NCBI GenBank assembly: GCA_036924285.1
Contig: JAYKYS010000001.1
Coordinates: forward strand, 41,849,501-41,913,500
Source of the DNA: Asterella californica
Taxonomy: Eukaryota > Streptophyta > Marchantiopsida > Marchantiales > Aytoniaceae
Direction: 5' to 3'
DNA length: 64,000 nt
The notes under the pieces are model-generated. The model saw nothing but the letters and a program-made list of their open reading frames with translations, made no database searches and was not told where the DNA came from. This document shows, piece by piece, positions 9,984 to 64,000 of this stretch. Position 1 is the first letter of the stretch; each line of letters opens with the position of its first letter. The translations under genes and the position numbers were made by a program.

Positions 9984-10058
9984 AAGGTTCTCTAAAGACT
10001 GGCTCTTCTACATCTGATCTGCCGTCCACTGTAGAAGAACCAGTCTTTAGAGAACCTT
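9984..10058. repeat. Near-perfect 28-bp inverted repeat, 19-nt loop (hairpin)
   Basis: Left arm 9984-10011 and right arm 10031-10058 pair at 27 of 28 positions; the single mismatch becomes a G:U pair in RNA. The loop is 19 nt. Size and pairing resemble a small-RNA foldback or a tiny MITE. The flanks do not extend the pairing. No coding frame crosses it. Confidence 0.85.
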
Positions 10059-10059
10059 G

Positions 10060-11280: not shown

Positions 11281-11302
11281 GTACATCAGAATTAGACATC
11301 TC

Positions 11303-11528: not shown

Positions 11529-11843
11529 AGATATTGAATTCTAACGAAACCTTAGAACTAAATATTGTGCTAAGGCAGAATATTTGTGAACTAAATACTC
11601 CAATAAAGATTTATGGTAACCTTCTCCGGAAGATCCCCAGATGATAAGGATATCATCTTCGCATCTCTCGTTTGATCTCGTCCGCTCACATTATATAGTC
11701 AAGCTAGTCCATGGAACGTGTGTGTAGATCATCTAGGGGGCTTCAGATTTCGTTCAAATGTTTCCCTTTGGTCTGTAGAGTATTATGTATCCAAGATAGT
11801 CGGACTGGACTTATTTCGTTGTCGCACTTCTGCAGGTCACATC

Positions 11844-37918: not shown

Positions 37919-40078
37919 ATGGGCGCGGACTCTGGAGGCAAAAAGCGGAAAAGAGAAGTGTCCGCTCCTGAGACCTGCCGAGATCAGGATTGCAATCGGG
38001 GAACTGACGAGCAGCAACGCCGGAAGCAAAGTCGGTACTCGAAGCTTACAAGAAGACAGAGAGACCAGATCACAGCTGGGGAAAATGGGGACGAATCCCT
38101 AACAGTTGGGGAGATCCATGAACATTCTGTTGCTGGTGAGGCAGTCGATAAGTATGCTGAATACCGTTGCCAGAATTGCGGGAAAGATGACAATGATGAA
38201 GAAATGATTTTGTGTGATAAGTGTGATTCGGGATTTCACATTTACTGTCTCCGCCCTATAGTCGTCTCTGTGCCAGCTGAAGAGTGGTTCTGTCGGTCGT
38301 GCATCACTCCTCGCAAAATTCTTGGTAATTCCGTTTCCTTCCTCCTTCCTACAGTCTGCGAGATGAGACTCTTTGTTTAACCGGATTTTCGCCCATCTAA
38401 ATCTGTTTGTTGTGTCTGCAGAATTTCCTAGAATTCAAACAAAGATTGTTGATTTTTTCCGAATCGAGAAGTTTCTGGAGGCACCAGAAGTTAGAAAGCG
38501 CAAGAGACACAGTGGAGCTTTGACAATTAGCAAGCGGAGTAGGAAGTTAGTGGTTCACACTCCGTCGAATGATCCGGACAGACTTCTTGAACAGATGAGA
38601 TCACTTGCCACGGCTTTGACCACGTTTAGTATCGCTTACAGCGATGAATTGACGTATCCACCAGGCTGTGCGTCTAGAGATTGCAACGATCCGTCGTTGG
38701 AAATGGGGGGCATGCAGGTCAGATTGGGATCCCTCTAGCCATGCACAGCTGATGAGAACTTATGACAGAAGTTGCAGGCCAGTAATTGCCCCTGCTAGGG
38801 AGTTTGTCATGCCACAACCAGTTCCAAACCGGATTGATATTCTTCTAGCTCAGTCGTCCGCATTTCTAGCTTTGTATCGTCCGGATTTTCGTGAATCTGT
38901 TGGGATAAGCTAATGGAAGGTTGGCGTCTGCTTCAGGAGATAAGCAAAGATGATAAGGCTGCTTATGGACTATGTAAGCAAATGTGGAGGGATGGTCATG
39001 TCGCACCTCTGATGGTGAAACATGATCCTCAACAAGGGTCAGTTCTTAATCTTGCACTTTCTCTTTCTCTCCCCGGAATGCCCTTGCAGTTGTTTTCAGT
39101 AGGTGTGCAAGTCCAAGTGCGCAAGATGGGCGATCGTGTATGAAAAAAATCTGTTTGACTGAAAGTAGTCGTGAGGCGTGCTTAAGTGAGTTGTATGGTC
39201 ATCAGTTCTTTCATCTCACCCTGTAGTCTAACGACTCTTCGGTGCCATTACTAGTGATATAAAGTAAGCCAAGCAGATCGAGTAATGGATATGGTTCTTA
39301 TGAGAGTCGTTTGAGCACTGCAGATTTGTGGTGGAAGCAGACAGTCCTATCAAAGATATGACAATTGTTGCGGAGTACACAGGGGATGTGGACTTTATGA
39401 AGAATCGGACGAATGATGACGGTAATAGCATCATGGGTCTCCTGTTCACACACGATCCGTCAAAAGAATTGGTGATCTGCCCCGAAAAGCGAGGAAACAT
39501 TGCCCGTTTCATCTCCGGCATTAACAATCATACCAGGTACGAAGTTTGCCATGTTTCCCTTAGCTTGACTCGTCTCCACTTCGTCGTAGACCGAGTCTCA
39601 TCGCGCGCGTTGTGATACCTACCTGAACCTTACGCACGGCCTGCACAGTTGGGGACCCCACCCACACTGAATGTGAATGCTTACTGGTCACATGAACCTG
39701 TGTGCTACTACTGTTAAGACAGTGTTTTCACTACCATTTGAATCTTTTTGCATTTACCATAAGAATTTACCGTCCATATCATGCAGTACAAGTTTAGTGG
39801 TTTATACTCATACTTCCATTTGTGGTCTTACTGTGGCCATGTTTGTTGAAGCATGAGCTGATTACATGAGACAGTAGAAATGTGAACTGATTACACTTCT
39901 GATTTTATCGTCTTGCAGAGAGGGGAAGAAAAAGCAAAACTTGAGGTGCGTCCGATTCAACGTAGACGGAGAGGCACGAGCGCTGTTGATAGCCATCCGA
40001 GATATCCCCAAGGGTGAACAGTTGTACTATGATTACAACGCCTATTTTTCAGACTATCCAACAAGGCACTTCGTATAA
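37919..40078 (+). CDS. ATXR6: ATXR5/6-type histone H3K27 monomethyltransferase (PHD-PIP-SET)
   Basis: Nuclear SET-domain enzyme of the plant ATXR5/6 family, which in Arabidopsis deposits H3K27me1 during replication and restrains heterochromatin re-replication. Five exons: 37919-38324, 38422-38717, 38937-39037, 39324-39536 and 39919-40078, all with GT-AG borders and consistent phases, giving about 391 residues (Arabidopsis members are about 350-380). A basic N-terminus is followed by a PHD finger at about residues 83-127 (CQNCG, MILCDKCDSGFH, EEWFCRSC). A PIP box QTKIVDFF at about 141-148 would bind PCNA. Then come the family block 'RLLEQMRSLATALT', 'MQEISKDDKAAYGLC' and a SET domain from about residue 268, with RFISGINNH and a C-terminal LYYDYN. 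All hallmark residues are present, so it looks functional. ATXR5 and ATXR6 cannot be separated by eye; the symbol is a family guess. Confidence 0.93.
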
Positions 40079-41156: not shown

Positions 41157-42014
41157 TCACATAAGAATATCCCCGAGAATAAGTCCGCCTATAGCACCCC
41201 CTAGAAGCCCTAGGAGTAAGCCCCCTCCGCTGGATCGTTGTGGTTGAGGAGGCTGTACATACGAATATGGCACTTGTGGATAATAAACTGGAGGGGGAGC
41301 AGGATATGTGTAGCCCCGTGGGTAGCCGTCATATGTTGGAGGATACGCATATGGAATGATCCCGGAAGTACCAGAACTCGAACTGGAACTAGAATGCGTA
41401 GAATCAGCCGACAGAGAAGGATACCCAGTGGCTGTTGTACCATGACCATGACCATGATTTTCATAGTAATTTCGGACCGCAGAGTACGGACCAGCCACAG
41501 GAATGCCCATCACTGGAATTCCTTCCACGACTTCTTGGCTCTTGTCGACAGAACTGGTATTATCGTTGTATCGTGGTGCTGATGGTGTTGCCTGGAATGA
41601 ATCTCCCTTTAATCTCATTGCGAGCGTAACGACACCCTTGGCCCTTCCCGATGATGGCCTTTGCAACTGCAACGCTACCACGGCAGGCTCCTCCTGTGCG
41701 GTTGGACACAATCTGTATACCTCATGGAGATTAAGCCACGCAGTCCCGACCACCTTGTTACCCAAATTTGATTCGGCAAGGATCTCTACAGTCAGGTAAG
41801 AATTGGGATAACGCTGAGTTACATTTCCCAGAGTAAGCGTGACAGTGTCGTTCCAGATGGGGTTTCGACCAACTTTACGAAGCACTCTCGTCGAAACTTT
41901 CATGGCTGGGTCGACATACACCACAGCCAAAAGATCCATCTTCCCGCCGAAAGTGTTGACATTCTTCAGATCATCCGCACCCATAATCGTCAGTTCCAAT
42001 TGAGAAGGCGCCAT
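41157..42014 (-). CDS. C2-domain protein, SRC2-like, single exon
   Basis: 285 residues from an ATG at 42012-42014. Residues about 5-125 form one C2 domain: it opens LELTIMGADDLKNVN, continues FGGKMDLLAVVYVDP and includes NPIWNDTVTL, the usual beta-strand order of plant SRC2/BAP-like C2 proteins that bind calcium and membrane lipids. A linker with Ser, Tyr, Pro and Gly runs to about residue 255 (SSSSSSSGTSG; YPPTYDGYPRGYTYPAPPP). The C-terminus is a glycine-rich hydrophobic tail, GGGLLLGLLGGAIGGLILG, likely a membrane anchor, as in SRC2 proteins tied to ER and vacuole traffic or cold signalling. There is no intron, unlike its neighbours. The family call is confident; the precise role is inferred. 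Confidence 0.9.
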   Translation of the reverse strand: MAPSQLELTIMGADDLKNVNTFGGKMDLLAVVYVDPAMKVSTRVLRKVGRNPIWNDTVTLTLGNVTQRYPNSYLTVEILAESNLGNKVVGTAWLNLHEVYRLCPTAQEEPAVVALQLQRPSSGRAKGVVTLAMRLKGDSFQATPSAPRYNDNTSSVDKSQEVVEGIPVMGIPVAGPYSAVRNYYENHGHGHGTTATGYPSLSADSTHSSSSSSSGTSGIIPYAYPPTYDGYPRGYTYPAPPPVYYPQVPYSYVQPPQPQRSSGGGLLLGLLGGAIGGLILGDILM

Positions 42015-44870
42015 TTTTTCTCGCCGACCTACAACCTAGAGATCAAATTCCTCGCTCGCCCACAAGCAGCAGGTCGCACAAACAAAGGAAAACCTGTTCA
42101 GCAACCTAACTCTTTGAGAGCCCACAATACTTCCTTCGATCCAGCAATCTCCACTCAGTTCTATACCGCGGGCTTCATTTCGTCCGTCGCTCGAGAAAGC
42201 TGTGGGAATGAATGAGTTCGTACAGTGCCCACTGTCCTCCCTGCTCACGACCAAGTCGGGCGAAGCTCCTAGCTCTTTACTGTAGTTCGATCCCAACGGC
42301 CCTTACCACGGTCAAGAAAGCACAAAATTCCGCGAAAATCCCTCGTCTGAGTCTCAGCGCAGTTTCCGCAACCCACCCGCGGACGAACCCACCCCACTCA
42401 TTCCCATCACTCATTGCTCGCTCGAAGTGCACTCTGTCCAACATATTGCCAGTTCGCCTCCTCCTCCTGTGTTCGAAGGGTACAGTACTGTCACAGTTTC
42501 GCAAACTAATGCGCATTTACTTCAGGCCGAGCGTGTGACGGGATCTGCCAGCGCGTCCGACGGGTAGCTGCCCGCTATTTTCTAAACCTCGAGGGAGGAA
42601 GTTTCTTTTTAAGGCATTAACCCTAAGCCTGCGGCCAAACTCGAGGTCTCATCACCACGCTACCACGAGGTGATGCTCTAATCTTCTCCCGCACAGTAAT
42701 AAACAGATCTTACTCGATCTTCACATCTTCTGCCCGAATTTCAGTCTTACTTACCCGGATTCAAGCGTGCCGTAATTAAGTTTACACGAGGGTCACTGCA
42801 TTAGTTGGCTAATCAGTGACACTACTGTACCATCCCTGTGTTCGGCTTGACATTACGCGGACGTCCGACAGGGGCTATGTGGAAGAAGGGACTGCCCCGG
42901 TATACGACGTCGCCACGTTCGCTATGGGATATATGGATCCACCGGAGACGTCTCCTTTCTTACAGTTAACGGTCTACTCCATTGTATCAAGGATTATGGG
43001 TGTCAAAGTTTAGCGGAAATATTCTTCTGAACGTCTGAAACGGTTGAGCAAACCGAATAAGTTCTAAACTTCTCAGCGACTATGTAGTAAATTAAATTTA
43101 GATTTTTATTTTATTTTATCACTATATTGAGTACAATGACAAAATAAATCCCAATCTTTTATGCAGTGTTGCAATGTTTACTTGTTACAAAAACTTTTAT
43201 TTTTTCAACAAAATATTTTTCTCAAAATATTCATGTATATTACCAGCTTTTTCCTCTCTCTCTGTGCACTTCTCGCTATATCCTTGTCAAGAATTTCTCT
43301 TCCTCGAAATGTAAACTTATTTTTTACCGATAATTTCCCAAAACCATCTTTTGCATGCATGTTAGGACTCGAGATTGAATCAGAATTCTATGACATTTGT
43401 GCAAGATGTAAGAGGTTTGATGTTTCTTACGAGAAGCATTAGAAAAGTAAGAAATAAGGAACATATGAAAAATCCAATCTCATAGCAAAGTCAGTGATCT
43501 CCTTTTTTAAGCCCAGTGTTCTTATCAATAATGGAGTCAGAATTCAAAATTAACATTCATTTCCCAAATGATAACAGGTAAATATAGGCTCACTTCGCTA
43601 GTCCATCTTGGATCATTCCAAACATGCATAACCTTACTAGTACAGCAGATAATTTTCAGCTTGAACATTAACTCTTTCTTGAATAGTGTTTGTTTTCTAA
43701 AAAGTTCTGGGGATATTGTGGGGAGTCAAACACAAAGATTCTTGGACGTCCGGAAGGAAAAATGCCGTAATAAATATTCGTTCAACTTTGTTTACAAGCC
43801 CAGTTAATAAGGAAATGACTTTTTGAATGGTCAGAATCGTACCGAAAAGAAAACTGCCGTAATAACAATCCGTCTAACATTGATTACGAAACGCGATTCA
43901 TAGAGAAATGATCTTTTTGGATTTCCAGAACCGTATCGTAATAAATTATTTGTTGCCTCTGAGAGTTAAAATTCATAGGCTTGGAATTTAGTTTGGAATT
44001 TAGTTTTTCATTGCAACAACTCACATTCAAAACAAGTGAAAGACGAATAATAGAAAACCGCGAGCGTTTTCCTGCGGAGCTTTCCGCAGATATCATCCGT
44101 GAATGTCAAATGAATGAAATCGTTACTCCACCTCGCGGAGGAAAAATATACAGAAAAGGTTACAACTTTGACTCTCCCTATTATTATCTCTTACCTCGGC
44201 CTGCATCCAAGAAACTTCCATGTATTCAACTCTTGGACCACCACGACGCTTTACTGATCCTATCATTGACACTAACATGACTAACACTGGGGTAAGCAGT
44301 ATTGCCTATCAGTGATCCGAATCTACTTATTCAGCCAACCAAGCAGAAACTCAATCTAGTCTCTGAGATAATTAACAGTGATTTTAGAAACATTTCTTTA
44401 CATTGACAGGGTTCATGACTCTTCGACTGTTTGCGTTACTTGTTTACCATAAGAACACTGCAGCGATCGAGGTTATCATCTTCTACCCCTAGGTTAGCTC
44501 ACCACGAGCTTGTCCTGAGCTGTTCTAGAGGTCGACACACCGTCCGTAAATAAACGGGCACTGGGAGTTCAATTAGCTTCCTTACTCGTTCGAACTCGCA
44601 GCAGTTTAGGTGCAAAAATACCGCTCCCGTTCTGTACACAGAACACAGCTCTCTCATACTTAATGACGCGTAGTTGAGTCGTGTCAAACTGGGTAACTGC
44701 GGTCAATCAAGGCATCGGTTTTTGGTTTGTTTGCGCCGTTTCATTGGATGTCTGACGGTCCACCAAACAAAGTTTAACTTGCCTGTGAGCACTGGGGGTT
44801 CAAATGGACACTTAAATAGAGGGATGAGCAAGTTTGAACCACAGACGCAACGTTCACGCTGAATGGGTTC
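42015..44870. other. C2 gene upstream region and intergenic DNA
   Basis: The first few hundred bases upstream of 42014 should be promoter and 5' UTR of the C2 gene. From about 43.0 kb the DNA becomes AT-rich. A 99-codon frame at 43981-44280 has no recognised domain and I do not call it a gene. Confidence 0.4.
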
Positions 44871-50543: not shown

Positions 50544-51652
50544 CTTGACGAGTAAAGAATCGCACGACCCTGAGCAGGTCGTGGAACTCCAAGCGTGCGA
50601 ATACTTCGGGACCTTGAACTTCAACCTTGAAGTGCAGTAGTCGGGAACCAAATTCAAGTTAAGGAAAAATCGGATCAAGCCTCTGCTAGAATCGAAACTT
50701 TATTTGACGACCAGTCTCAGAGGCAGTCAAAAGTATGGTCAGTGGTCCCTGCTGCTACATTTCCTCGCCCACTCGACTGATTACCACGAAACGAATTTTC
50801 CCCGCGTCTGAGAGATGCGGTCGTCGCCTTGTCATAAGCTCGGCTGAAGCTGGGCGTGCGTTGAGCCTGCAGTTTGTTTTGTCTTTTCAAACGGATTTCC
50901 CAGAGTCCATGCACACAAATTTCCGTCCGTGCAGTCATGATTTTCGCGATTTAAAACCCCCAGTGCGGGTAGATAAACTCCTGCGGCATGTTTCACGTGT
51001 GTTGACAGCGAACGTGAGACGTAGAATGATCAGAAAATGCGGCATTCGATAACTTTGTTACCAGGAAGTAATTTCCGTCACACGGGAGAATCCGTCTGTC
51101 GAATGCACCTATTTTGACTCGAGGTTTTAACTCTAAGAGTTGCTGAAAGTAATCGTAGTAACAACCCAATCCGCGCAGCTTTTTCTCGTGTAAGTTATTC
51201 TCAAACCTCTCTCCGTAAAGAAAATTGCAGGAATAAGAAAAGAAGAAGTTAGTCTGCATGTCAGGGAATGCAAAAGATCACGTTTGCGGACATAGACTAT
51301 AAATCTTTAACTGACTCAAATATTCACGTACTCAGAGGTGGTATGTAAATTTTATGATACAAACCACTAAACAGTTTTATGAGAATCCTTTACTTCTTGG
51401 GATTAAGTGTCCATTGTGTCGTCTTACTGTGTTCCTGACGAGAATATTTTTCAAATTTACAATCTTTCACTGGAATCTGGAGCAAAAAAAGCTTGAAATT
51501 TAACAAACTGGTTTCTGATAATGCTTAGATGAAAAATAATTTTGAATTGAGAAAAATATGGCGCTTCTAATTGCTTGCCATTGCTGTTTACACGTCAAAA
51601 ACGGCAATAAAACTCAGACGGTATGAAAAGGTGCAGTTTGCTCTGGGTAACC
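50544..51652. other. SDR promoter side and left flank of the retrotransposon
   Basis: The upstream region of the minus-strand SDR gene, ending where the retrotransposon's 5' LTR begins. Open frames at 50735-51052 (plus) and 50717-50938 (minus) overlap each other and match nothing known. Confidence 0.4.
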
Positions 51653-51940
51653 TGTCACGTCAGTTTGGCACCTCGGCTAGGTTGACCGAGTGCGAAGTGA
51701 CGCATCTCGGTAAGGCCGTTAGTGCCGTTAGGTCGAGTTGGTGGGAGGGCTCACTAGGGGTATACTTCGCAGGTAGGGCTTGGAGGCCTTAGTTCTTCGA
51801 GTTTAGTCTTCAAGCTCCAGGCTATGGTGGATAGTCTAGTTGAGTGTAACCCGGATTCTCTTTGTGCTTAGAGTGGGTTTGGCTTGACCGTTTGTGAGTA
51901 ATCTTTGTTGTAGTGTTGGAGATGATAATTTCTCTGTTCA
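51653..51940 (+). repeat. 5' LTR (TG...CA)
   Basis: Begins TGTCACGTC and ends CTCTGTTCA. Aligned by eye with 61187-61474 it has the same length and about 10 differences, 7 of them transitions. Confidence 0.88.
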
Positions 51941-53770
51941 GATTACTCGAAGAACTGAGTGCAGGTCGAGATGGAGTTCAGTAAGAACCCGCTGATCTGA
52001 AATCGTCCGCTGGTATCTTTGGGCGTGGTCGTTCGTGCTTGATTAGTTGGACCTGTGATCGAGGTGTGTGTGGGCGCATGGTACCTTGCTGATCGCAGAT
52101 CGATTTGCTGTTGTTGGGGTCGAGTGGAAATTTTTCTGTCATGCGGAAGCGCTGCAGAAATTTTGCAGAATGTTCTTGAATTGACTTGTTGGAGCCGGAG
52201 TGCGCGTTTGGACGTGGCAGACGGAGTACTTGTCAATGTCAGACCGGAGTGGGCTCTTTGGAAGCGCATTGGAGAGACGATTCTAGTGCACTAAGTTTCG
52301 TGGAGTTTGACCAAAGATCGAAGAAGTTATGGCATGTCGAAGTTCGCTGTCGTGTCACCCGAAAGTGCAAAAAGGCTAGTTACGTCAAATTTTTGTTTAA
52401 TTTCATGTGGAAACTCGAGTTTAAGAGTTCTTGTGTGTGGTGTACATTTGCGAAGTGTGTATGGTGCATTTGTGAATCTGTTGTAGTGGTGTTGGGGTTG
52501 GCTTTGGGTGATCTTGTTGATTTACGTCAGATTTTTGGATACCTGTGTGCACCCACGAGCCGTTTTGCTGTTTTCGAGTCTCTTTTGGTGCAATTTGGTG
52601 CAATTCGAGATGTAGTCGAGTCTCTTTTGGTGTGCTCTACTTGTTCTACTCTACTCCAAGCGGAGCGGAGCGGAGAGTGAGCGGGAGTGTCGAGGTGTGG
52701 AGTGCGTGTTAGGAGGCGTTGAGAGGCTTCGAGGAGCAGAGGTGCGTGAGTTCGGAGGCGTGAGAGCGGAGTGCGGAGGCGGAGCGGAGCCTGAGCCTGA
52801 GCCTGAGCCCGAGTCCGCGTCCGTCGCAAGCCAGCTTGCGGGCGTGCGTGAGAGAGGTATCCAAGTTCCAGTTGTGTGGGAAGTGTAAAACCAGCTGGTC
52901 ACCCATCCCAACACTATTTCTGGACCTGGACTCTTAACTCTGTAGTCTTAGCTTTGGCTTTACCACTAGACCAATAGCTCTTGGTGTCCTACAAGGATGC
53001 GTGCAAGTGCTTATGGACTTGTATAAGGTAATAGGAGACCTTCTCGCATGTCCCTAGAGGAGTGATAGGGCGACCCTATAGTATTAGGGATAAGCTATAG
53101 TTGTGGTAGTGTTTGTCTATATCGCAGAGACGTGTATGAAAACAGTTGGTGGCAGTTGTCTTGGGTGAGCTAGTAGAGCTACCACGTGGATACTTTTGGA
53201 GCTACTAGAGGTGTAGACATCTAGTTAGTGATCTCAAGTATCAGTTACGACAGTTGGTGATCATATATTGTGCATGTGATCACCGACGAGGAGTCGTCAG
53301 TCCGGGTGGGACTGGGTTTCTCTTTATGTGAATGTTTGAGTGTGGAGGGTTATCGTTTGGACTTCTTGTGGTTGGAACCCCTCCATATTCTGCTTCCTGT
53401 TTGTGCGCCGCGTTTTCTTGTGTTGGCGCTTGATTTCCGGAGTGGGTTCACTCCAGTGTGTTGTCGGTAGTGAGGCTGGAGTTGCGGACCAGTCAGACTA
53501 TCTTTGTCTCTCTCACGGTGCGGTTGGAGTGACGACCAACAGACTGTGAGAGGCTGCCTGTGGTGATGGCAGGTACAGGTTGCCCTTACCTTGACCGTCC
53601 TAATAGGGGATAGGTGAGCTCAGTAGGAGCGGGGTTAGGCAAGTGGTGATTACGGTGGTGACGGAGATTGCGACATTCCGGTTGAGGAGTGTGTTAGCGG
53701 GATTCTCTCATCATAGAGTTCTCGGGAGGTTCTGGAGGGGACTTCTCGAACAGTGGGTATACACGAAGTG
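51941..53770 (+). other. Retrotransposon leader, non-coding
   Basis: Between the 5' LTR and gag. It contains a hexamer run (gagcct, about four units, 52787-52815), a repeated 'gagtctcttttggtg' phrase (near 52577 and 52618) and the 5S/tRNA-like block at 52890-52986. A frame of 164 codons at 52186-52680 is open but matches nothing. Confidence 0.5.
52890..52986 (-). ncRNA. 5S rRNA/tRNA-like Pol III promoter block (pseudogene or SINE-like)
   Basis: On the minus strand, 52908-52897 reads ggatgggtgacc, identical to the C box of plant 5S rRNA, preceded by 'tagtgttg' (5S has 'tagtacta' there). 52940-52933 reads gagttaag, matching the 5S 'gcagttaag' region at the right distance. Further upstream, 52973-52963 reads tggtctagtgg, a perfect tRNA A-box. 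The order A-box, 5S A region, C box suggests a tRNA/5S-derived element rather than a true gene. It lies antisense inside the retrotransposon leader. Confidence 0.5.
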
Positions 53771-53772
53771 GG

Positions 53773-55721
53773 ATGAGGTACCGACTACCTACACCATTGT
53801 CATCAGTTGTTCCAGAGGACGAGTCAGATGCAGACAACGCATTTCTGGTGGTGAGTCTAGTGTCGCCAGACCGTTGTTGTGGGACATGGACGAGATCTGT
53901 GGGGCCACGAAGAGACCTCGACGTTACTTGGGTACGGTGGGTACCATTGAGCTGGATGACTTCATCCAGGAGTTCGACAGTTGGTGCGACCTGCAGCAGA
54001 TGCGGAACCCACAACTGTTTACATCTTTCATGGCGTGGAAGAGTTTGTTTCAGCACTTGGAGGGACCGTCGATGGATGATTACCACGAGTTCAGACGAGA
54101 CTACGGTGTTGAGATCGAGTTGTGGAGACAACATTGATCTCCCAACTACGTTTCTATCACTACTGGCGTAGTTTCGGGAGACGTAGCACCTATGAGTTCG
54201 GGTGCCAGTAGTAGTGGTACATCCACAGATGACGGAGTACCTACTACCAACGGTGCGTCCACAAGTAGTGGAACAGGTGGTAGTGTGAGAGGGATACCAC
54301 CAGGGTTTAATCATGTGGTTCAGTTCTTCCAATGTTTGAGGAAGAACTATCATGGTGTGCGGACCGACAAGTTGAGTAGTCTGCAGGAGTTCCAGCGGAA
54401 GACTGGAGAGAGCCTACGTGAGGCGTTTACTCGCATGAGGCGGTTGATCAGCGTTATCCAAGGGATGACGGAAGCACAAGTAGTCCAGTTCTGGTATAGG
54501 ATACTAGATCGGGAGCTGCGTAGGAGAGTTAGAGATGCTATTCTCCTTAGAGATATCGCTCCGACGTTGGCGGTTGTCTTTGGTCTGGCTGAGCGGATTG
54601 AGCTCAACATGGTGGAGGAGAGGGTGGTGGTTGTCGGGTTCGGCAAGGAGACACCACATGGAGCGACCACCTCTTCTCGAGGATCATAGGCTACGCAACA
54701 GCGTGGTGGTGGTGGTGGTAAAGATCGTGCAGAGCAATCACGATCTCAAGGAGGTGTTGGATGATCTAGTGGACAGAAGCCCATGCCGTCTTTCTCTAGC
54801 CAGCAGCAAGCGGGTCATTGCTGGACGTGTGATGGTCCTCATCAGCAGAAGGACTGTCCACAGAGGAGAGGTTATGAGACATCGAGGACGTCTCAAGCAG
54901 TACCTAAGCAATGTGAGCATTGCGGACGACTTGGTCACAGTAGTGACCGTTATTTTGATCTCCATCCCGAGTTACGGCAAGGGAAGGCTGATCGTGGACG
55001 AGGCGGAGGAGCTCAAGGAGGCCGTGGTGGTCGAGTTGGAAGTAGAGGTCCAGCACCTGGGAGAGGACTGGTCGGTCCACCATTTGCTACGATGTCAGAA
55101 GCCGGTATGGCTGCTCAGATTGAGCAGTTGGAGCAGAGGATAGCTAGTATGGCTATGGCTCAACGGAGATCAGGTGGAACAGAGGCTTCCACGTCTTACA
55201 AAGGAGAAGGAGGTGACTTCGACTTCATGACTGACGTGGCGTAGATTGAGACATCTGCGGTAGTGACTAGAGGTGCAGTACGTGCTTCCGAGCCACGAGG
55301 TGCGTCAGTGGAGTTGGATCCACAACGCGGAGAGGCTGGTAGACAGGCCAGGCTTCCTCAGTCATTCACTTTATCGGAGGCGTTGAGGATCACATCTATG
55401 ATTCCTAAACGGCCTACCGATGGTGCAGTAGAGTTGGAGACATCGACATCCAAGAGTGGGTGTGATGTGAGTCCACCCTCGACATCGGTGGATGCGACAT
55501 CGAACCCGATGTTGGGGGCGGCTACAGCAGTTTTGCGAGCCCCACTATTTTCAGCCACGGATATGAAAGCACTGGGAGTCAGATTAGCTCCAGTGTTCCA
55601 ACTGACGGCCACGCTCAGTGAGAGCGAGGATGTAGTTACCTCTAGTGCTGAAGTAGTTCAGCGAGAGGCGGTAGACGTGTCCATGGAGTCGAGGATCAGG
55701 ACAGCTACCAGTGGTACTTGA
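53773..55721 (+). pseudogene. Retrotransposon gag (capsid and zinc knuckles), broken
   Basis: The N-terminus is best read from ATG 53773 (MRYRLPTPLSSVVPEDESD) with a shift near 53.86 kb into the frame that gives ELDDFIQEFDSWCDLQQM and the typical gag helix block GESLREAFTRMRRLI...VVQFWYRIL at about 54.40-54.52 kb. A nucleocapsid follows: first knuckle C-W-T-C-D-G-P-H-Q-Q-K-D-C at 54819-54857, second knuckle C-E-H-C-G-R-L-G-H near 54912, whose last Cys position reads Tyr (TAT). Then comes a coiled-coil-like segment (AAQIEQLEQRIASMA) at about 55.11 kb. Stops interrupt at 54135, 54687, 54762, 55242 and 55719. Confidence 0.82.
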
Positions 55722-55862
55722 CAAGCGGTGACTACTAAGTTAGATGAGTTACCAGCTAGGCCGGCGATCGACCGTGCTGGTTTGGCACCAGATGTGGTGT
55801 TGTTGGACAACAGAAGTGGTATCTTCTGTTTGGTGGCACCTTCAGGGAAAGTGTATCGACCC

Positions 55863-56560
55863 TAGAAGGTCTTGTTAGACTCTGGAGCCCAACCGTTGAT
55901 GTTGGAAAAGACGGCATGTATTGGTTTGGGTCTAAAGAAGTCGGAGGTGGAGAGATGTCCATTCCAATTGCAGACATTTCTAGAGGGATCAGGAGGTACG
56001 GCTCTACACATGGCACGTGAGATGTTGACGGTGAGAGTTCGGCCAGATCATCCCACAGATGGCTCTATGGTGAGGACCAAGGCCATCGTTACAGCCGCAG
56101 AGTCTTATGATGTATTGGTTGGAGATGTTGTGTTGTATCCTATGGGGTTTGTGATCGACCATTGGGCAGAGACAGCATCTTATAGATCAGGTTGGCAGTC
56201 CGGTGAGAGACGAGTGAGCCGCTTACCAATGCGGTTCAGTGCTAGAATTGAGACGACGGAGCCTACACCAGGGACGATGGCATCCGCTGTAGGGTTCAGT
56301 TCGGTCATCACTTGGCCGGACGAGTTGTTGGAGGGTAATGCCCATGCGGAAGATACTCCGGTCTTTGAGGAGGTGGAGGACATGCCTAGCATGTCTACGT
56401 TAGTACCATCTGCCTTGGATGTTTCACTTTGGAGTTCGAGTGGAGAGTTGCAGCAGTATGCTGATCAGTTGGTGCAGCAGGCTTGGAGTGAAGCCTTTGT
56501 ATCACTAGTAGAGGAACAAAGGGTTGTTCTTGCTACTGGCCCTGTGACCTTATCATCGTT
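55863..56560 (+). pseudogene. Retropepsin-like aspartic protease domain
   Basis: The active-site motif L-L-D-S-G-A is at 55872-55889, just after an in-frame TAG (55863-55865). Downstream segments 'LTVRVRPDHP', 'KAIVTAAESYDVLVGDVVLYPMGF' and 'DHWAETASYRSGW' correspond to the strands and C-terminal part of gypsy proteases. A polar linker then runs to the methyltransferase. The catalytic Asp is intact, so this part is broken only by the stop at its start. Confidence 0.75.
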
Positions 56561-56589
56561 AGATACGACTCTCATTGTGTGGCAGTATC

Positions 56590-57549
56590 CAGAGGAGGGT
56601 GTATGTGTGCTGGAGTTGTTTGGAGGGATCAGCACAAGTTTGGCTGTGGTATTGCACGTAGGTATATAAGTACAGCGATACTTATATGTGGAGAGAGATG
56701 AGATTACGAGACGCATCTCATTGCGACATGTGGTATGTTTGGTGCATAGATATCCTGAGTTGTTGTCCATATCAGCTGTTATAGAATATCAGCAAGCATT
56801 ACCGTCAGATATTTTGTTGCTGGGGGCGCAGGATCTTACGTTTGTTGACATCATTCACTTGGTGATAGCCGGATGGCCATGTCAAGGTCACACGCGTGTT
56901 GAGAGAGGTCAGGGTTTACATGACCAGCGATCTATGATGTTCTGAGAGATGATACGGATCTTACGACATCTCCAGATGCATCAGATGGATTCTCCAGCGT
57001 ACATCTTGGAGAACGTTCCTTTGTTGGGTGATGCTCGTACATGGATGATGACGAGTGTGCACCAAGTGCGGTCTTGGGTGGGACCAGCAGTGTTGTTGGA
57101 TGCAGCGAGAGTAGGATCTCGTGCACAACGTCCACGATTGTGGTGGACGAACTTGTTACCGAGAGAAGTGCTTAAGCGCACACATGATGGAGTGAGACAG
57201 TCAGTGCATCTCACGGTTGATAGCATCTTGGATGCAAGACGACGATCGCAAGTAGTGAGTCGTCGATAGGTCACCCATGGCAGTGATGAACCTAGTGAGA
57301 CAGCCCATGGTAGCATTACTCACTTTGGTAAGCTTTCCAGCGTCACATGCTTACAGAGATGGATGACCTAGGCTTGTGTGGGATGCTCAATTACGGCAGT
57401 TGGTGGAGCTCAATGCCGATGAGAGAGAGCGAGCGATGGGTTTCGCTACGGATACGACGGCAGTAGCTTTGGTGTCGGAGGCTTCACGTCATCAAGTAAT
57501 GGGTCAAGCAATGGATTTGAATTGCTTGACATGAATTGTTAGCCTTGGA
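56590..57549 (+). pseudogene. DNA cytosine-5 methyltransferase domain (Dnmt3-like) inside the retrotransposon
   Basis: Would transfer a methyl group from AdoMet to cytosine C5. Motif I (SAM binding) VLELFGGIST is at 56607-56636; the following 'RYLYVERDE' matches motif II. Motif IV IAGWPCQGH has the catalytic Cys codon at 56880-56882. 'GLHDQRSMMF' then corresponds to the Dnmt3 GLYEGTGRLF region. Motif VI YILENVP is at 57000-57020 (Glu at 57009-57011). Motif VIII AQRPRLWWTN is at 57123-57152. After a one-base shift near 57.26 kb come 'GLVWD'-like text, motif IX-like NADERERAMGF and motif X GQAMDLNCLT, ending near 57549. No long target-recognition domain lies between VIII and IX, as in Dnmt3. 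Stops at 56667, 56943, 57267, 57364 and 57532 inactivate this copy. Motif order is canonical, not rearranged as in plant DRM. Confidence 0.88.
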
Positions 57550-57959
57550 TTGGCTAAGCAGCGTTGGATGCGATCGACAAGAGTTACTGCTCGAGCACTC
57601 TTGAGCTCTTTGTCTATCGGGTCGGTGGAGGTAAAGGCTAGGGGCGAGGCACGTGGAGTTCGTCATCCTTGGACATCATGGGATGTCGTAGGAGAGAGTG
57701 TGGAGCTTGCATCTAGAACATTTCGCACAGTAGCGGTGGAGGTTGTTGGTGGTGAGCAGAAGGAAACTGCTCCAGAGGCTGCAAGATAGCAGTCGACGAC
57801 TTCGTCTTCTACCTCTAACATGGTAACAGAGGATACTTGGGAGCCAGAGATTGGACCCAAGCTTATAGGAGAGGAGACGAAGAGTTCAAAGATTCTTGAA
57901 GAGCTACATGAATTGTTTTACTTTCAGTATGAAGGATTTGGGTACCTTGAAAGGACCTG

Positions 57960-58740
57960 ATATACGGATTGATTTGGCTCGCCAATCTTTCGACGTCCTT
58001 ACAGGTACAGTGACATGGAGAGAGCCTTGATCCAGAGTAGGACTCAAGACTTGTTGGAGGCTGGGTTGGTGGAGATGTCGCATGGAGAGTATGCATCTGT
58101 CACAGTTATGCCAGCCAAGAAGGATATGTATGGCAACTACACGGATAGACGGATGTGTGGAGACTATCGTCTTATCAATCGGCAGACGAAGTCCGATAAG
58201 TATGCCATGCTGACACCTGAGGAGATCTTTGATGCAGTGGGGCATGTGAAGGTCTTCAGTACTTTGGATCTTCGAGCAGAGTATCATCAGTTGCCAGTGA
58301 GAGAAGAAGATAAGTCCAAGACAGCATTCTGAGGAATTGACTCTCACGGCAAGGATTATTTGTATCACTGGCGGTTCTTATCATTTGGGTTGAAGAACGC
58401 CCCTACTGAGTTCCAAAGGATGATGGACAGAATCCTAGCAGGATTGGATTTTGTCAGATGTTATATTGACGACATCTTAGTCTATAGTGCTACAGTGGAG
58501 GAGCACGAGAGACACTTACGGGATGTGTTCGAGCGATTGAGAGCTCATGGGTTGAAGTTACACCCTGGGAAGTGTAAATTCTTCCAGGAGTTGGTAGAGT
58601 ATCTGGGCCACACCATCTATCCAGGTGGGTTGGGTGTTCAACAGACGAAAGTTGAGGCTATTGCACGTATCCCACGTCCCACAGATGTGAGTCGAGTTCG
58701 AGCATTTGTTGGTTTTGGCGAACTTCTATCGTCGATACGT
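57960..58740 (+). pseudogene. Reverse transcriptase domain
   Basis: The RT starts with 'FRRPYRYSDMERALIQ' and continues LLEAGLVEMSHGEYASV, VMPAKKD, MCGDYRLINRQT, FSTLDLRAEYHQLPV (first catalytic Asp), FLSFGLKNAPTEFQRMMD and the catalytic YIDD at 58462-58473, then KCKFF and LGHTI. These are the RT motifs 1-7 of Ty3/gypsy in order. Stops lie at 57958, 57970 and 58330. A single extra T in a T-run near 58712-58715 shifts the frame at the RT connection motif. Confidence 0.9.
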
Positions 58741-59290
58741 GAAGGAGTTTAGTGCAATTGCGAAGCCGTTGACCAAGCTGATGAAGGTGGACCAGGAGTG
58801 GCAGTGGGAAGATGAGCAAGAGCGAGCTTTCGTAGAGCTCAAAGATAGGTTGACATCTGCTCCCATCTTGAGGAGACTCGTTAGAGGGTGTCCTTTCCAA
58901 CTGCACATCGAGTGGAGTATGTTGGGACTTGGAGCAGTGCTGACTCAGCATGATGATGAGAAAAAGGAGTTCGTGGTGGCGTATGCCAATCGTTTCAACA
59001 ATTCAGCGGAGGCGAGGTATAGTTTGTATGAAGGAGAGTGTTCAGCGGTAGTGTGGGCTGTTGCACGCTTTCGATGTTATTTGTTTGAGAACCCTTTTAC
59101 TCTCATCACTGATCATCCACCGCTCAAGTGATTGATGAAGTCCGACAAGCTTACAGGGAAGCTTACACGATGGGCTCTGATCTTACAGGAGTATGACTTC
59201 CATGTAATTCATAGACCTGGAGTTGCAAACCTAGATGCCAATGGGTTGAGTCGCAACCCGTGCACGAGTCAGCAAGATCAGACTGGGACT
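58706..59290 (+). pseudogene. RNase H domain
   Basis: The frame resumes at LANFYRRYVKEFS and enters the RNase H region: 'LGAVLTQHDD' (the first Asp of the fold is replaced or shifted in this copy), 'YSLYEGECSAVVWAV' with the conserved Glu, and 'LITDHPPLK' with the conserved Asp, interrupted by a TGA at 59129. The tail reads YDFHVIHRPGVANLDANGLSR, the usual end of gypsy RNase H. Confidence 0.82.
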
Positions 59291-59479
59291 CGATGGCATG
59301 ACGAGGTTGATGAGGAGATAGTGCCAGGGTGGCATGCATCTGTCTTTCTTTGTGTGTTGGCCATGAACTCTAGTATGGAGGGTCAAGTCGTATCTTTCTT
59401 TGGTCAGAGAGTAGATGATGAGTCTCCAGATCCTGAGGGTGGAGATGGTGTTCCAGACTAGCGAGATATCCATGATGAT

Positions 59480-60650
59480 GTGACCGTGATGGAGTATCTA
59501 CGTACTGGTGTGATAGTAGGCACAGTAAGTGCCAAGGAGCGAGATCGTGTCCTTCAACGAGCGAAGAGATTTCAACAAGAAGGACGACATGTACTTCTAG
59601 TGTGGGGTGATGAGAGGGTACGGATAGTGCCACATCCATCCAAGAGAGCACAGTTAGTACGACATACCCATGAGGAGTTGGGACATTTTGGAGTGAAACG
59701 TACGCATAGCTTACTCCAAGGACAGTATTGGTGGCGTAGTATGCACGTCGATGTGCAACAGTTTGTCGCACGATGTGTGGTTTGTGAACGAGTACGAGCA
59801 TTGTTTAATGCTCCTACTCCACAGTTACACGCCTTATCGATTATGGGGTTGGATTATCGTTGGAGTTTGGATTTTGCGGGACCCTTATCATTGACCGTAC
59901 GTCACCACCGGTATGTGTTGGTGATGATCGAGCACTTCTCCAAGTGGATTGAGTTGGTGGCATTATCAGACAAGGCGAGTGAAGAGACGGCGTACGCGTT
60001 CTTAGATCGAGTGACGAGTCGTTTTGGAGCACCAGCTGAAGTGTTGACAGACCAAGATACAGAGTTCCTTGGTGAGTTTCAAGTCTTGTGTGATCAGGCG
60101 CTGATTGATCATCGGACTACATCTCGAGATCATCTTGAGGCGGATGGTTTGACGGAGAGGGTAGTTCAGACGGTGAAGAGAAGATTGCGCAAGTATGGCT
60201 TGCAGAAGGGCCACTTGGGAGATTGGGATGTGCAGTTACTATAGTTGACTATGGACTACCGTTTCAGCCGACAAGCGTCTTTGGTTTCCTTCTCACCGTA
60301 TTTCTTATTGTATGAACGAGATCCAGATCTTCCTTCGGTCATTCGTCGTGATTCTGCTGAGGTGCTGGACAATGATGACTCGGATATGTGGGTGAGAGCA
60401 TGTTCTCAACGAGCAGAGACATTTCAGAGAGTTATGCCTATGACTTGAGAACCTAGCAATTGCTCAACATAGAGACACGTTGCGATATGCGACTATCCGA
60501 GGAGGAGGTTATCGGTCGTCGATTCGCAGGTTTCATCCTGACGATTATATCTATCTACAGCAGACTGCACCGATGACGTTGGACGTGATCGCAGGGCGCA
60601 CTATTTTACGAGTGCGTGAGGTGTTACCTTCTGGAGTACTCATGTTAGAG
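59480..60650 (+). pseudogene. Integrase domain
   Basis: An HHCC zinc region is read as H-T-H-E-E-L-G-H-F-G near 59660-59695 and C-V-V-C near 59769-59783. The catalytic core has W-S-L-D-F-A-G near 59862-59882, L-T-D-Q-D-T-E-F near 60045-60068 and an E in A-D-G-L-T-E-R near 60140-60165, the DDE set. The C-terminal part follows after stops at 60242 and 60446 and a shift near 60.45 kb: 'FHPDDYIYLQQ', then 'RTILRVREVL', a GPY/F-like barrel. Catalytic residues are intact. Confidence 0.87.
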
Positions 60651-60758
60651 GGCCGTGATGGTGTTGTGTGGAAGGACCATGTGCGTAATTGCGCGCCATG
60701 TCATCTTCCCAACATTGATGGTACCATTGACCCAAGCTTAGCAGTTGTACGCGCGGGC

Positions 60759-60905
60759 TTGAGGTGTATGTTGTGTGGGTCTGCTGGTGGAGCAGTCCGT
60801 ATGTTGATGTGTGATGGTTGTTCGAGAGGTTGGCACATGTCATGTTTGACTCCACCTCTCCGTGTCGTTCCTACTGGACGGTGGGTTTGTCCTCGATGTA
60901 TATAG
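60759..60905 (+). pseudogene. PHD finger fused to the integrase C-terminus
   Basis: Cys4-His-Cys3 pattern: C-M-L-C from 60765, then M-L-M-C-D-G-C, S-R-G-W-H-M-S-C, and G-R-W-V-C-P-R-C with the last Cys at 60897-60899; the TAG at 60903-60905 ends the ORF. All eight metal ligands and the conserved Trp before the last Cys pair are present. In PHD proteins this module reads histone H3 tails; here it takes the place of the chromodomain of chromoviruses, so it may steer integration. The segment itself is undamaged, although the upstream ORF is broken. Confidence 0.88.
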
Positions 60906-61076
60906 CAAGGATAGCCGATTAGATCTTTACGTGGTATGGATTGCAGACAGGCGACTAACGATGGGACGATGTAGCACCCGGCCTCTTGATCCTTGCATCC
61001 ATGAAGGTGTATATCACGTAGTTGAGATATGGAGCTATCTGGAGTGAGAGGGACCTAACCGCCAGTTAGAGGAGCG

Positions 61077-61184
61077 ATTGTGATACACTTGTGTATGTGT
61101 ATGACATCGTCCATGTGTTATGTGTATGTGTGGTGTACCTCTGACAGCGATGTATGTTGTGTAACGATGTGTATGCGCACGACA
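61077..61184 (+). repeat. ~106-bp repeat T, copy 1 (immediately left of the 3' LTR)
   Basis: From 'attgtgatacacttg' to 'gtatgcgcacgaca'. It is repeated at 61478-61584 on the other side of the LTR with about five differences. A purine-rich 'agaggagcga' precedes it. Confidence 0.88.
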
Positions 61185-61186
61185 GC

Positions 61187-61474
61187 TGTCACGTCTGTTT
61201 GGCACCTCGGCTAGGTTGACCGAGTGCGAAGTGACGCATCCCGGTAAGGCCGTTAATGCCGTTAGGACAAGTTGGTGGGAGAGCTCACTAGGGGTATACT
61301 TCGCAGGTAGGGCTTGGAGGCCTTAGTTCTTCGAGTTGAGCCTTCAAGCTCCAAGCTATGGTGGATAGTCTAGTTGAGTGTAACCCGGATTCTCTTTGTG
61401 CTTAGAGTGGGTTTGGCTTGACCGTTTGTGAGTAATCTTTGTTGTAGTGTTGGAGATGGTAATTTCTCTGTTCA
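61187..61474 (+). repeat. 3' LTR (TG...CA)
   Basis: Same ends and length as 51653-51940, about 96.5 % identical by hand count. No polypurine tract directly precedes it, because the T repeat intervenes. Confidence 0.88.
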
Positions 61475-61477
61475 CAT

Positions 61478-61584
61478 TATTGTGATACACTTGTGTATGT
61501 GTATGACATCGTCCATGTGTTATGTGTATGTGTGGTGTATCTCTGACAGCGATGTATGTTATGTAGCGATGTGTATGCGCACGA
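61478..61584 (+). repeat. ~106-bp repeat T, copy 2 (immediately right of the 3' LTR)
   Basis: Same sequence as 61077-61184 but ending 'gcgcacgata' instead of 'gcgcacgaca'. It is followed by unrelated flank ('aacatagcgatc'). Confidence 0.88.
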
Positions 61585-64000
61585 TAAACATAGCGATCTT
61601 TCTTTCACGTCCACGCACGTCAAAAAGCGAGGTAAGTATCAAGAGCGGAGATTTAACCTCACCAGCTAAGGGCATCTCCACCCGAACACTGGAAATGGCT
61701 CAGGAAGTACCAGTTCTCAATCTTCTCAAAACTTGACATGGTATTCAAGTTTAGCATGGACGTTTACAGAAACGGGACTCGAGATAAATTAAGAATGAAA
61801 ACTTGTCATTTACTGTCTTTTCTCATCCATCCCGCCAAGAAGGCGACTGGTTACCGGGTCTGTTTACAGTGCGGAGACATTTACAGTGCTCCCGTGGAGG
61901 TGCTCTAACATGTTTACAATCATTTTCATTTCTGTACAAGATTTTACCAAAATTTACTTCCTCAATCCCCTGTAGCAACCGTTGATATTCTTTTATCCCT
62001 CTTTGATTCGAAATATTATCCTCGGTTCTTTATCGACTGGTGGGCAGGTTACGACTGTGGTATCATCTACCGCGATGTGTAATACGGACTAATCATATGC
62101 AATATAGCTCCAACGAACTGCAATTATGCAATTGTGAGTCCTAAGTCTCTATAGACTTGTGAAATAAATTCGACAATCTAGAACACGTAGGAATATGAAC
62201 GTTGTCATACAATGCGTACTGGTTTAATCCCACTTGAATTTCATAACTTTCGTCTGTCTTACATGTGGATAGTCTATAGATCATTTTGATGATGGTCCAT
62301 TACAGAATGCTTCTTGCATAGCTTTGTTGTGGATTATCTTCGAAGAAAATGTCTTTGTTTATGTGCGGATTCTGCGACTGTCTCACGGTGTAAAATGCGT
62401 GGATGTATGGTTCTTTGGTCCATTAAGTCCTCTCAGTCAATATACCTTTTACTTGTAGCTGGAAAATCCTAAATAAAGTTTATCCATCTGTCATTGCACA
62501 GTTGGGACGTCAGAAGGACTTCCACAAGCTAGAGGTGTCATATAATGTTTTGTTGTAGGTTGAGTTCTTTCTGCTTATACACATAAGTGGTGGTCTTTTT
62601 GTTTACTTGGCGTTAGATGAGTGTTTCAGGGTAGAAAGTTGCTAAGTTGTTGCTGCTATTTGTGGCTTAGATTGGCATGTGAACATGAAAGGTTGGTGTA
62701 CGAAGGTTGGATCATGTATGATACAAGGCACAAAGAGGAGACTATGATGAAGATCAAAGAATCAATCATTATTCAACGGTCATTCGAGGCTTTCTTCTTC
62801 AAAGTTTATGCTTATAAAAAATACGACTTGGATCAGAGGTAGAATGTAGAGTAAATTTGTGATCCGTTGTTTCGTTACATGATGCTGAAGAGTGTTCAAA
62901 GGCCAATTGGGTTGTTTTTCCAAATTTACACGTTTGGATAAATTTGTAGAGTAAAATTTTGATCCATTGTTTCTCAACGTGATGCCAAAGAGTGTTCTTC
63001 CGTTGCTGCAGGCATCGGACAACTCTAGATAGCGTATATGAGACTACCGTGAGTTGAAGCTCGCTGCTAATCACTACGTGAGTGCCCTCAAAATCCGTCA
63101 CACCCGAGCGCATAAAGGTTGACAAGAGTGCATCTTTGCAACGAGATAAAAAGCCTGTCAACAAAGAGATGACAACCTCATAGACAAGGTCAAGAATGCA
63201 TCTGTCAATGAGAAGAGATCAGAATATCTACAGCTCAGCAGCTCGAAAAGTCCTTTCCGCTCTTGCTCAGTCTCTCATCCGCTCCCAGTCTATGATTTGG
63301 ATGATCCGTGCCCTCGTAGTACCTCTTAAACAGCTTCATCGATGGTCATCAAGGAAGCCGAGAACCAAACGATCGCTACCAGGTCAAAGTGACTAAAGCA
63401 GACATTTCGAACATTGGTAGACCAAGGAAAATTGACTGTTACTACTAAGGAAGTAAATTCCTGAAGGGTTTTATGTAGTTTTGGATGTAAACAGAATGAT
63501 TCCTTGTCATTATTAATTATGTTGTTGAAATAAAGTTAATAAATAATGGAATATAAAGCTCAAACAAAGCGTTGAAATGGATCTTCATTTGTGAGATTTA
63601 TTTATATGATGATAAAACACATTATCAAGATGACAGTCACTTTTTTGTGCCCAATTACCATTAATGCGTACAAAGAGGAACGCTGAAGAGAGCAAAACCC
63701 TTATACTAGTACTTTTGCTTTTAATGGTTATATCTGCATTTTTCTCATACGTCTTTATTTTGTTGAATTGTCTGCTACAAGAGAGTTCAATAGAGAATTC
63801 AAATAGTGTATGATTTGACTAATGCACGACCAACAAAAAAGCAGGTATGCTTGACCTGTGTTTGTTATGACTTCACTTTCATTTTTCCAATATATTTAAA
63901 TAGATGTTTAGACAAAATCTATATAGTCAATAAAGTCATTGCTGTTTATTTTCAAGAGATGGATCTGGCATTAAAATTAAGTATCTCAGATTTGGACAAA
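61585..64000. other. Right flank, AT-rich, no recognisable gene
   Basis: I see no protein domain or RNA gene. Open frames are short; those at 62780-63164 on the minus strand result from the direct repeat at 62842-62998. Confidence 0.45.
62842..62998. repeat. Two-copy diverged direct repeat, ~58 bp at ~97 bp spacing
   Basis: 'tgtagagtaaa' to 'gatgc(t/c)(g/a)aagagtgttc' occurs at about 62842-62898 and 62945-62998. Confidence 0.7.

What the first reader, a model, noticed from the sequence alone, without database searches (positions are those of the whole stretch)
56590..57549. A DNA cytosine methyltransferase captured between protease and RT of a Ty3/gypsy element
Motifs I (ELFGG), IV (WPCQ), VI (ENV), VIII (QRPR), IX (ERERAMGF) and X (GQAMDL) follow each other in canonical order in the same reading direction as gag, PR and RT, with no gap that would mark a nested insertion. 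Plant and animal gypsy elements normally have nothing between PR and RT. A retrotransposon that methylates CG sites could mark its own cDNA or host DNA, turning a host defence into a property of the parasite. I recall reports of DNMT-bearing retrotransposons in dinoflagellates and in a charophyte alga; whether this family is the same capture, and whether the PR-DNMT-RT layout is known, cannot be decided here.
Basis: partly seen in the sequence, partly recalled or inferred. Interest (0 to 1): 0.96.

Follow-up and report, generated by a model that had tools for sequence, protein, structure and literature searches.

The report
Jumping gene carrying a DNA methyltransferase
This stretch is a broken copy of a retrotransposon, present in at least 150 places in its likely plant genome, that carries a gene for a DNA-methylating enzyme between its protease and reverse transcriptase; the enzyme gene changes as slowly as the element's other enzymes, is predicted to be made together with the particle protein, and would likely methylate the element's own new DNA.

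Summary
A C5 cytosine methyltransferase domain lies between protease and reverse transcriptase of a Ty3/gypsy element. This copy is dead: 10 stop codons and one frame change in Gag-PR-DNMT. In its 517-Mb genome the 150 scored matches to the domain are 88-100% identical at protein level, and 32 of 150 have an open frame of at least 1,300 aa. Among open copies the DNMT is under purifying selection (pooled dN/dS 0.20; RNase H 0.19). The predicted fold matches DNMT3A/3B best. The kind is known: KnitGypsy-Dnmt3 of Klebsormidium (PMC5890265). A K. nitens protein here has the same PR-DNMT-RT order, and the repeats have the same unusual A-coding-B-A-B plan. Not found in print by my searches: the family in liverworts, Sphagnum, Closterium and many metagenomes; a Gag-PR-DNMT frame closed by UAG-CARYYA, a leaky-stop context, with RT-RH-INT-PHD opening in the same frame; a PHD finger on the integrase; 4-bp target-site duplications; and a second lineage with the DNMT between RNase H and integrase, the position changing once on both DNMT and Pol trees. 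Readthrough, packaging and methylation of the element's own cDNA are inferred.

The parts
51649..51652 (.). left target-site duplication candidate (AACC); right candidate AACA at 61587-61590, 3 of 4 letters
   Evidence: flanks printed; 7 of 9 other copies have a perfect 4-bp duplication at the same borders
51653..51945 (+). A1 terminal repeat, begins TGTCACG
   Evidence: 294-nt direct repeat, 96% to A2
53886..57786 (+). ORF1 region Gag-zinc knuckles-PR-DNMT-tail, broken in this copy (10 stops, one frame change)
   Evidence: tblastn of Marchantia P0141
54765..55244 (+). stretch with CCHC zinc-knuckle motifs
   Evidence: sequence; PF00098 E 0.037, below cut-off
55866..56300 (+). retroviral-type aspartic protease region (LLDSGAQP)
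   Evidence: sequence and colinearity with P0141; in relative L007 PF13650 E 7.8e-4, below cut-off
56601..57560 (+). DNMT3-like C5 cytosine methyltransferase domain, motifs I-X
   Evidence: fold of relative P0001
57787..57795 (+). TAG stop after DNMT plus six bases; TAG-CARYYA in 37 of 38 distinct places found, this window being the exception (TAGCAGTCG)
57832..58722 (+). reverse transcriptase, same frame as the DNMT tail and the TAG
   Evidence: tblastn of L007 ORF2, frame 1; PF00078 E 8.1e-24
58706..59260 (+). RNase H
   Evidence: PF17919 E 7.3e-27, PF17917 E 1e-22
59462..60508 (+). integrase with H2C2 and DDE core (rve)
   Evidence: PF17921 E 5.9e-17, PF00665 E 5.8e-13
60765..60905 (+). PHD finger ending the integrase ORF
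   Evidence: PF00628 E 8.6e-12; PDB matches CHD4, MLL3, KDM5B
61077..61182 (+). B1 repeat
   Evidence: 106 nt, 97% to B2
61186..61479 (+). A2 repeat
61479..61586 (+). B2 repeat, right end of the element

Best explanation
The window holds a dead copy of a high-copy, likely recently active Ty3/gypsy retrotransposon that carries a DNMT3-like cytosine methyltransferase between protease and reverse transcriptase, and this enzyme is predicted to be made at Gag level, likely packaged into the particle, where it would methylate the element's own newly made DNA before integration. Shown by sequence in this family: the domain order Gag-PR-DNMT, then UAG, then RT-RNaseH-integrase-PHD in the same frame; TG..CA ends with 4-bp target-site duplications; split repeats A-coding-B-A-B; and DNMT purifying selection like that on the other enzymes. 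Inferred: occasional reading through the UAG makes the Gag-PR-DNMT-Pol fusion, so DNMT would be made with every Gag and Pol only sometimes; the protease frees DNMT in the particle; DNMT adds 5-methylcytosine to the new double-stranded cDNA; the PHD finger would steer the integrase to a histone H3 tail state. The DNMT is probably an old capture of a host Dnmt3-type enzyme shared with the Klebsormidium element.
Against: No activity, particle or methylome data here. The stop is not general in the PR-DNMT-RT branch: 15 of 272 proteins run from DNMT into RT in one frame, among them P0083 and P0143, whose plant gene models may splice over a stop, and K. nitens P0206; so the Gag-level argument covers the window's and L007's groups only. 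The K. nitens DNMT gave no methylation in yeast, which its authors call inconclusive. CpG observed/expected is 0.79 in the element and 0.79 in the 51.6 kb before it, so no CG mark peculiar to the element shows. Changes private to the window copy are mostly C>T/G>A (204 of 277) but commonest at CHG (9.2%), then CG (6.5%) and CHH (5.2%), against 1.0% for A>G/T>C: this looks like ordinary plant silencing. In the genome's own copies the RNA fold after the stop is unremarkable (one copy folded: z -1.35, 19 of 200 shuffles as good). An in-frame ATG is the 11th codon after the stop in the window, so reinitiation is possible there. Motif IV is altered in 5 of 51 rows and not covered in 1.
Confidence: 0.53

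Rival explanations
1. The DNMT acts on host chromatin or on other copies rather than on the element's cDNA, for example to silence relatives or to ease the burden on the host.
For: High copy number with many similar copies; the PHD finger suggests work on chromatin. PMC5890265 discusses host-side effects.
Against: Position upstream of the leaky-type stop suggests synthesis with Gag, hence in the particle; Pfam found no domain besides the methylase in ORF1 of one open copy at E<=1e-3.
Confidence: 0.2
2. The DNMT methylates RNA (the genomic RNA or its tRNA primer) rather than DNA.
For: PMC5890265 raises RNA methylation for the LINE type.
Against: Sequence and fold are nearest DNMT3A/3B; the tRNA type appears once among 32 PDB hits, at E 0.078.
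Confidence: 0.07
3. Pol is made by reinitiation after the UAG or from another transcript, not by readthrough; DNMT then still ends ORF1.
For: In-frame ATG as 11th codon after the stop in the window; relative P0153 has a predicted start near the place of the stop.
Against: TAG-CARYYA in two lineages (by my arithmetic about 1/512 by chance for the six bases in each, with equal base frequencies); L007 has no ATG before the RT core.
Confidence: 0.25
4. The domain is a private insertion of a host gene in this copy.
For: None found.
Against: 150 scored genome matches, 47 spaced DNMT-RT pairs, and proteins with the domain beside PR or RT from Marchantia, Calypogeia, Riccia, Klebsormidium and Closterium.
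Confidence: 0.01

Closest known systems
KnitGypsy-Dnmt3 of Klebsormidium nitens (de Mendoza et al. 2018, PMC5890265; abstract, sections 9-11 and passages seen)
   Same: Ty3/gypsy Pol with a Dnmt3-type DNMT in the coding region; repeat structure 'the same as that of a DIRS retrotransposon' (legend of their Fig. 4), which another legend gives as A-coding region-B-A-B; purifying selection on the DNMT; a K. nitens protein (P0206) has PR-DNMT-RT-RH-INT order and its DNMT lies on the same side of the tree. That P0206 belongs to the published element is my inference.
   Different: Here Gag, PR and DNMT form one frame closed by a leaky-type UAG, whereas P0206 is one frame from PR through INT (a partial gene model). 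The integrase ends in a PHD finger; 'PHD' does not occur in the main text of that paper. Host is likely a bryophyte; the paper calls the K. nitens copies fewer than in Symbiodinium.
SymbioDIRS-Dnmt3 of Symbiodinium (same paper)
   Same: Dnmt3-type DNMT in a retrotransposon with A-coding-B-A-B repeats; two domain orders coexist there too.
   Different: Integrates by a tyrosine recombinase; here a DDE integrase with 4-bp duplications.
Chromoviruses (Ty3/gypsy with an integrase chromodomain; recalled)
   Same: A chromatin-reading domain at the C-end of the integrase.
   Different: PHD finger instead of chromodomain; DNMT added.
Gammaretrovirus gag-UAG-pol readthrough (PMC4178896 and PMC5778647, abstract starts in the listing) and the TMV-type UAG-CARYYA leaky stop (recalled)
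   Same: UAG between an upstream frame and an in-phase pol frame.
   Different: The stop here lies after PR and DNMT, not after Gag.

Membership tests
KnitGypsy-Dnmt3-type retrotransposon | Ty3/gypsy RT, RNase H and DDE integrase | tested here: met
   Pfam on window pieces and on an open copy
KnitGypsy-Dnmt3-type retrotransposon | DNMT in the coding region, same order as K. nitens | tested here: met
   P0206 PR:58-174 DNMT:305-569 RT:722-958; window order
KnitGypsy-Dnmt3-type retrotransposon | A-coding-B-A-B repeats | tested here: met
   window and 11 of 20 fetched copies show both A1/A2 and B1/B2; 1 shows only B, 1 only A, 7 neither within the 10-kb cut
KnitGypsy-Dnmt3-type retrotransposon | DNMT in one clade with the K. 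nitens element's | tested here: met
   same side of a branch with UFBoot 100 / SH-aLRT 97; unrooted, and the closest relation inside that side is not resolved
KnitGypsy-Dnmt3-type retrotransposon | purifying selection on DNMT | tested here: met
   pooled dN/dS 0.20, 15 copies picked for open frames
DNMT3 methyltransferase family | DNMT3 catalytic fold | tested here: met
DNMT3 methyltransferase family | place in the DNMT3 clade of a tree with host DNMTs | not tested
   no host DNMT3, DRM, CMT or MET1 sequences were in hand
DNMT3 methyltransferase family | methylates DNA de novo | not testable with these tools
   needs an assay
DIRS/PAT elements | tyrosine recombinase | tested here: not met
   the two frames of an open copy carry rve and no phage-integrase match at E<=1e-3
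Canonical LTR retrotransposon | same full LTR at both ends | tested here: not met
   B absent after A1, present twice at the right end
Canonical LTR retrotransposon | TG..CA ends and short target-site duplication | tested here: met
   7 of 9 copies
Chromovirus | chromodomain at integrase C-end | tested here: not met
   PHD is the only such domain at E<=1e-3 in the Pol frame of one open copy

The most novel reading that the evidence does not exclude
An ancient lineage of green-alga and bryophyte gypsy elements carries both a chromatin reader (PHD) and a DNA methylation writer (DNMT). The writer was captured once and moved once within pol. In the group of the window and L007 it is made with every Gag by ending ORF1 at a leaky UAG, so each particle is loaded with methyltransferase and the element inserts DNA that is already methylated.
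Probability: 0.38. Interest if true: 0.86.

Novelty: new variant of a known kind. Interest (0 to 1): 0.72.

Why it matters
Retrotransposons are a main target of DNA methylation, so one that keeps its own methyltransferase under selection turns the usual arms race round. PMC5890265 describes cytosine-methylase retrotransposons from Symbiodinium and Klebsormidium. A review (PMC6338049, passages) names adenine- and cytosine-methylase elements together from several protist and algal groups and says methylase transposons are not present in land plants such as tracheophytes. Finding the cytosine type in bryophytes, with many similar and open copies in a well-joined assembly, makes the question testable: is the cDNA methylated, is the insertion born silent, and what does the element gain? 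The leaky-type stop gives a concrete prediction of dose, and the two DNMT positions give a natural comparison.

Tried and rejected
Private insertion of a host gene: rejected. Normal LTR element with a damaged 3' LTR: rejected, because the B-A-B right end recurs in other copies. Bacterial or phage methylase: the six viral-contig loci match only 34-100 query residues at 31-53% identity. In the solved-structure search of the window domain no bacterial enzyme was listed at E<=0.1; for L007 HaeIII and HhaI follow the DNMT3 entries.

DNMT-free copies of the family in this genome: not decided. In the wider family four rows without a DNMT match (P0201, P0209, P0215, P0234) nest within the RH-DNMT-INT clade, so losses probably occur. 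Many RT-first proteins may have no DNMT because it is in ORF1, so their 'none' label says little (53 of 96 rows).

One capture or two: not decided, no host DNMTs in the tree. Chlorophyte presence is thin: one named protein (Tetrabaena P0255) with a partial DNMT match of 62 residues, and Haematococcus P0234 in that Pol clade with none. Sphagnum rests on DNMT pieces (P0006, P0096) with no RT beside them. DNMT tree rows dropped: 114 rows of at least 230 residues existed, 24 unplaced ones left out; 25 more dropped for long branches or near-identity. Protein searches were capped lists: 120 of 166, 32 (only 7,996 candidates scored), 120 of 971 (993 scored). A plasmid search found nothing. Host species: not identified; likely bryophyte from the nearest Pol relative, Calypogeia 86%. 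Not in print: rests on the searches, 99 of the held open-access library only. Papers: PMC5890265 abstract, sections 9, 10, 11 and passages; PMC12344493, PMC6338049, PMC2836005, PMC9998398, PMC6453930 passages only; others listing or start of abstract only. The CARYYA rule and the chromovirus and PAT plans are recalled. Correction made on checking: the stop is not general in the PR-DNMT-RT branch, so I lowered two odds slightly.

Full report
What is there. The stretch 51653-61586 is one retroelement. A 294-nt repeat A stands at both ends; a 106-nt repeat B stands twice at the right end, on either side of the second A. Between them lie Gag, zinc knuckles, an aspartic protease, a C5 methyltransferase, RT, RNase H, a DDE integrase and a PHD finger. 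The finding's six methyltransferase motifs are all present. This copy is dead: against Marchantia protein P0141, ORF1 has 10 stops and one frame change.

The family in its own genome. The window lies in a 516.7-Mb assembly of 773 contigs. The first look found 2,500 candidates for a 107-aa DNMT piece; 150 were scored, the window's own among them, and match at 88-100% identity, 32 with an open frame of at least 1,300 aa. An RT piece gave 10,297 candidates, 150 scored, 95-100%. Between the two lists 47 pairs lie on one strand 1,371-1,479 bp apart, 42 of them 1,406 or 1,407 bp. These lists hold the best matches only, so counts are lower bounds and the sample is not random.

Anatomy of 20 copies. 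I chose them from the 150, most for a long open frame. ORF1 ends in the same or nearly the same residues and a TAG in 18; in two the frame is broken earlier. The six bases after the TAG read CAGTCA in all 18. In 12 of 20 the RT-RH-INT-PHD frame opens at once and in phase. Both frames are uninterrupted in 5 of 20. Taking the 30 short loci with them (9 are cuts of the same places), the pattern search found 38 distinct places with TAG after the DNMT tail; 37 fit CARYYA and the window is the exception. The pattern required 12 set bases upstream, so places changed there were not counted.

A distant relative. L007 is a 9,285-bp contig filed in a cyanobacterial MAG; its ends overlap by 127 bp, so it assembled as a circle. 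It has an uninterrupted Gag-PR-DNMT frame, TAG CAA TCA, and RT-RH-INT-PHD in phase. Its DNMT is 50% identical to P0001, which is 64% identical to the window's. That the same leaky-type context recurs at this distance, with a strong RNA fold just downstream in L007, is the best evidence for programmed readthrough. In the one copy of this genome that was folded the structure is unremarkable, and reinitiation is not excluded. The stop is not general: 15 of 272 proteins run from DNMT into RT in one frame, some of them plant gene models that may splice over a stop.

Borders. With flanks on both sides, 7 of 9 copies show a perfect 4-bp duplication around TGTCACG...GCACGACA; one shows none, and one runs on into another A. 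The window shows 3 of 4 letters. So the element appears to integrate like an LTR element, with a DDE integrase, in spite of its DIRS-like repeats. A1-A2 identity is 98.3-100% in the 12 copies where both were in the cut, 96.3% in the window: the family looks young.

Selection. Pooled over all pairs, DNMT dN/dS is 0.20, below Gag (0.34) and PR (0.29), while the tail after it is 1.84 (15 copies). RT is 0.13, RNase H 0.19, integrase 0.15 and PHD 0.16 (9 copies). Pairs are not independent; seven disjoint pairs gave 0.18 for DNMT. Motif VI is intact in 51 of 51 rows; motif IV reads WPCQ in 45, keeps its cysteine with a change beside it in 5, and is not covered in 1.

Spread and history. Of 272 retrieved proteins, 34 have the DNMT between RNase H and integrase and 46 have it after PR or Gag, or before RT; 113 are DNMT alone. 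Named hosts of the second kind: Marchantia, Calypogeia, Riccia, Klebsormidium nitens and Closterium; Sphagnum gave DNMT pieces. On the DNMT tree the position changes once (90 rows, SH-aLRT 97; 65 rows, UFBoot 100 / SH-aLRT 97). On the Pol tree, built from RT, RNase H and integrase, it also changes once (96 rows, SH-aLRT 100). Enzyme and element have therefore travelled together for a long time; one capture with one move is the simplest reading, two captures are not excluded.

Compared with the known. De Mendoza et al. (PMC5890265) described KnitGypsy-Dnmt3 in one alga, with Gypsy domains and the repeat plan of DIRS elements. The window family is of that kind and shares the PR-DNMT-RT order of a K. 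nitens protein. What I did not find in print (searches listed under Tried and rejected) is its presence in bryophytes, the Gag-PR-DNMT frame with a leaky-type stop, the integrase PHD finger in such elements, and the second position of the DNMT in gypsy elements.

What this copy records. Of 6,581 columns in which 13 copies agree, the window differs at 277; 204 are C>T or G>A, at the highest rate in CHG sites. This fits cytosine methylation of the plant type and does not tell whose enzyme did it. CpG content gives no sign of a CG mark peculiar to the element.

Mechanism. Most likely the element makes Gag-PR-DNMT, sometimes reads through the UAG to make Pol, packs both, and DNMT methylates the new DNA. 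Readthrough, packaging, cleavage, activity and benefit are inferred.

Noticed in passing
L043 right end; B1-A2 junction in the window, L038 and L056: B1 and A2 meet as CA-GC-TG, which looks like two element ends joined; one copy runs from B2 straight into a further A. It may be the template of a joined-end circle, as proposed for split-repeat elements (recalled).
   Followed up: partly
L007 1-9285: A eukaryotic retroelement contig is filed in a cyanobacterial MAG (Synechococcales AVDCRST_MAG81).
   Followed up: yes
P0150 and P0151, residues after the PHD finger: These two proteins, with DNMT between RNase H and integrase, have a further C-terminal part of about 300 aa with DPWA and PPV-type motifs, perhaps a second methyltransferase-like fold; Pfam gives no name for it in P0150.
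   Followed up: no
window 57560-57786: The tail between DNMT and the stop evolves fast among copies (dN/dS 1.84), unlike its neighbours.
   Followed up: no
window 37898-38377 (+): Host-like exon with a PHD finger (PF00628 E 4.4e-12), reminiscent of plant ATXR5/6 (recalled).
   Followed up: partly
window 41157-42032 (-): Open frame with a C2 domain (PF00168 E 2.4e-11).
   Followed up: partly
window 2800-17700: Dense set of diverged direct repeats, mostly about 70-90% alike.
   Followed up: no
P0155: A transcriptome ORF (EukProt) 66% identical to the L007 Pol frame suggests that a relative is expressed.
   Followed up: partly
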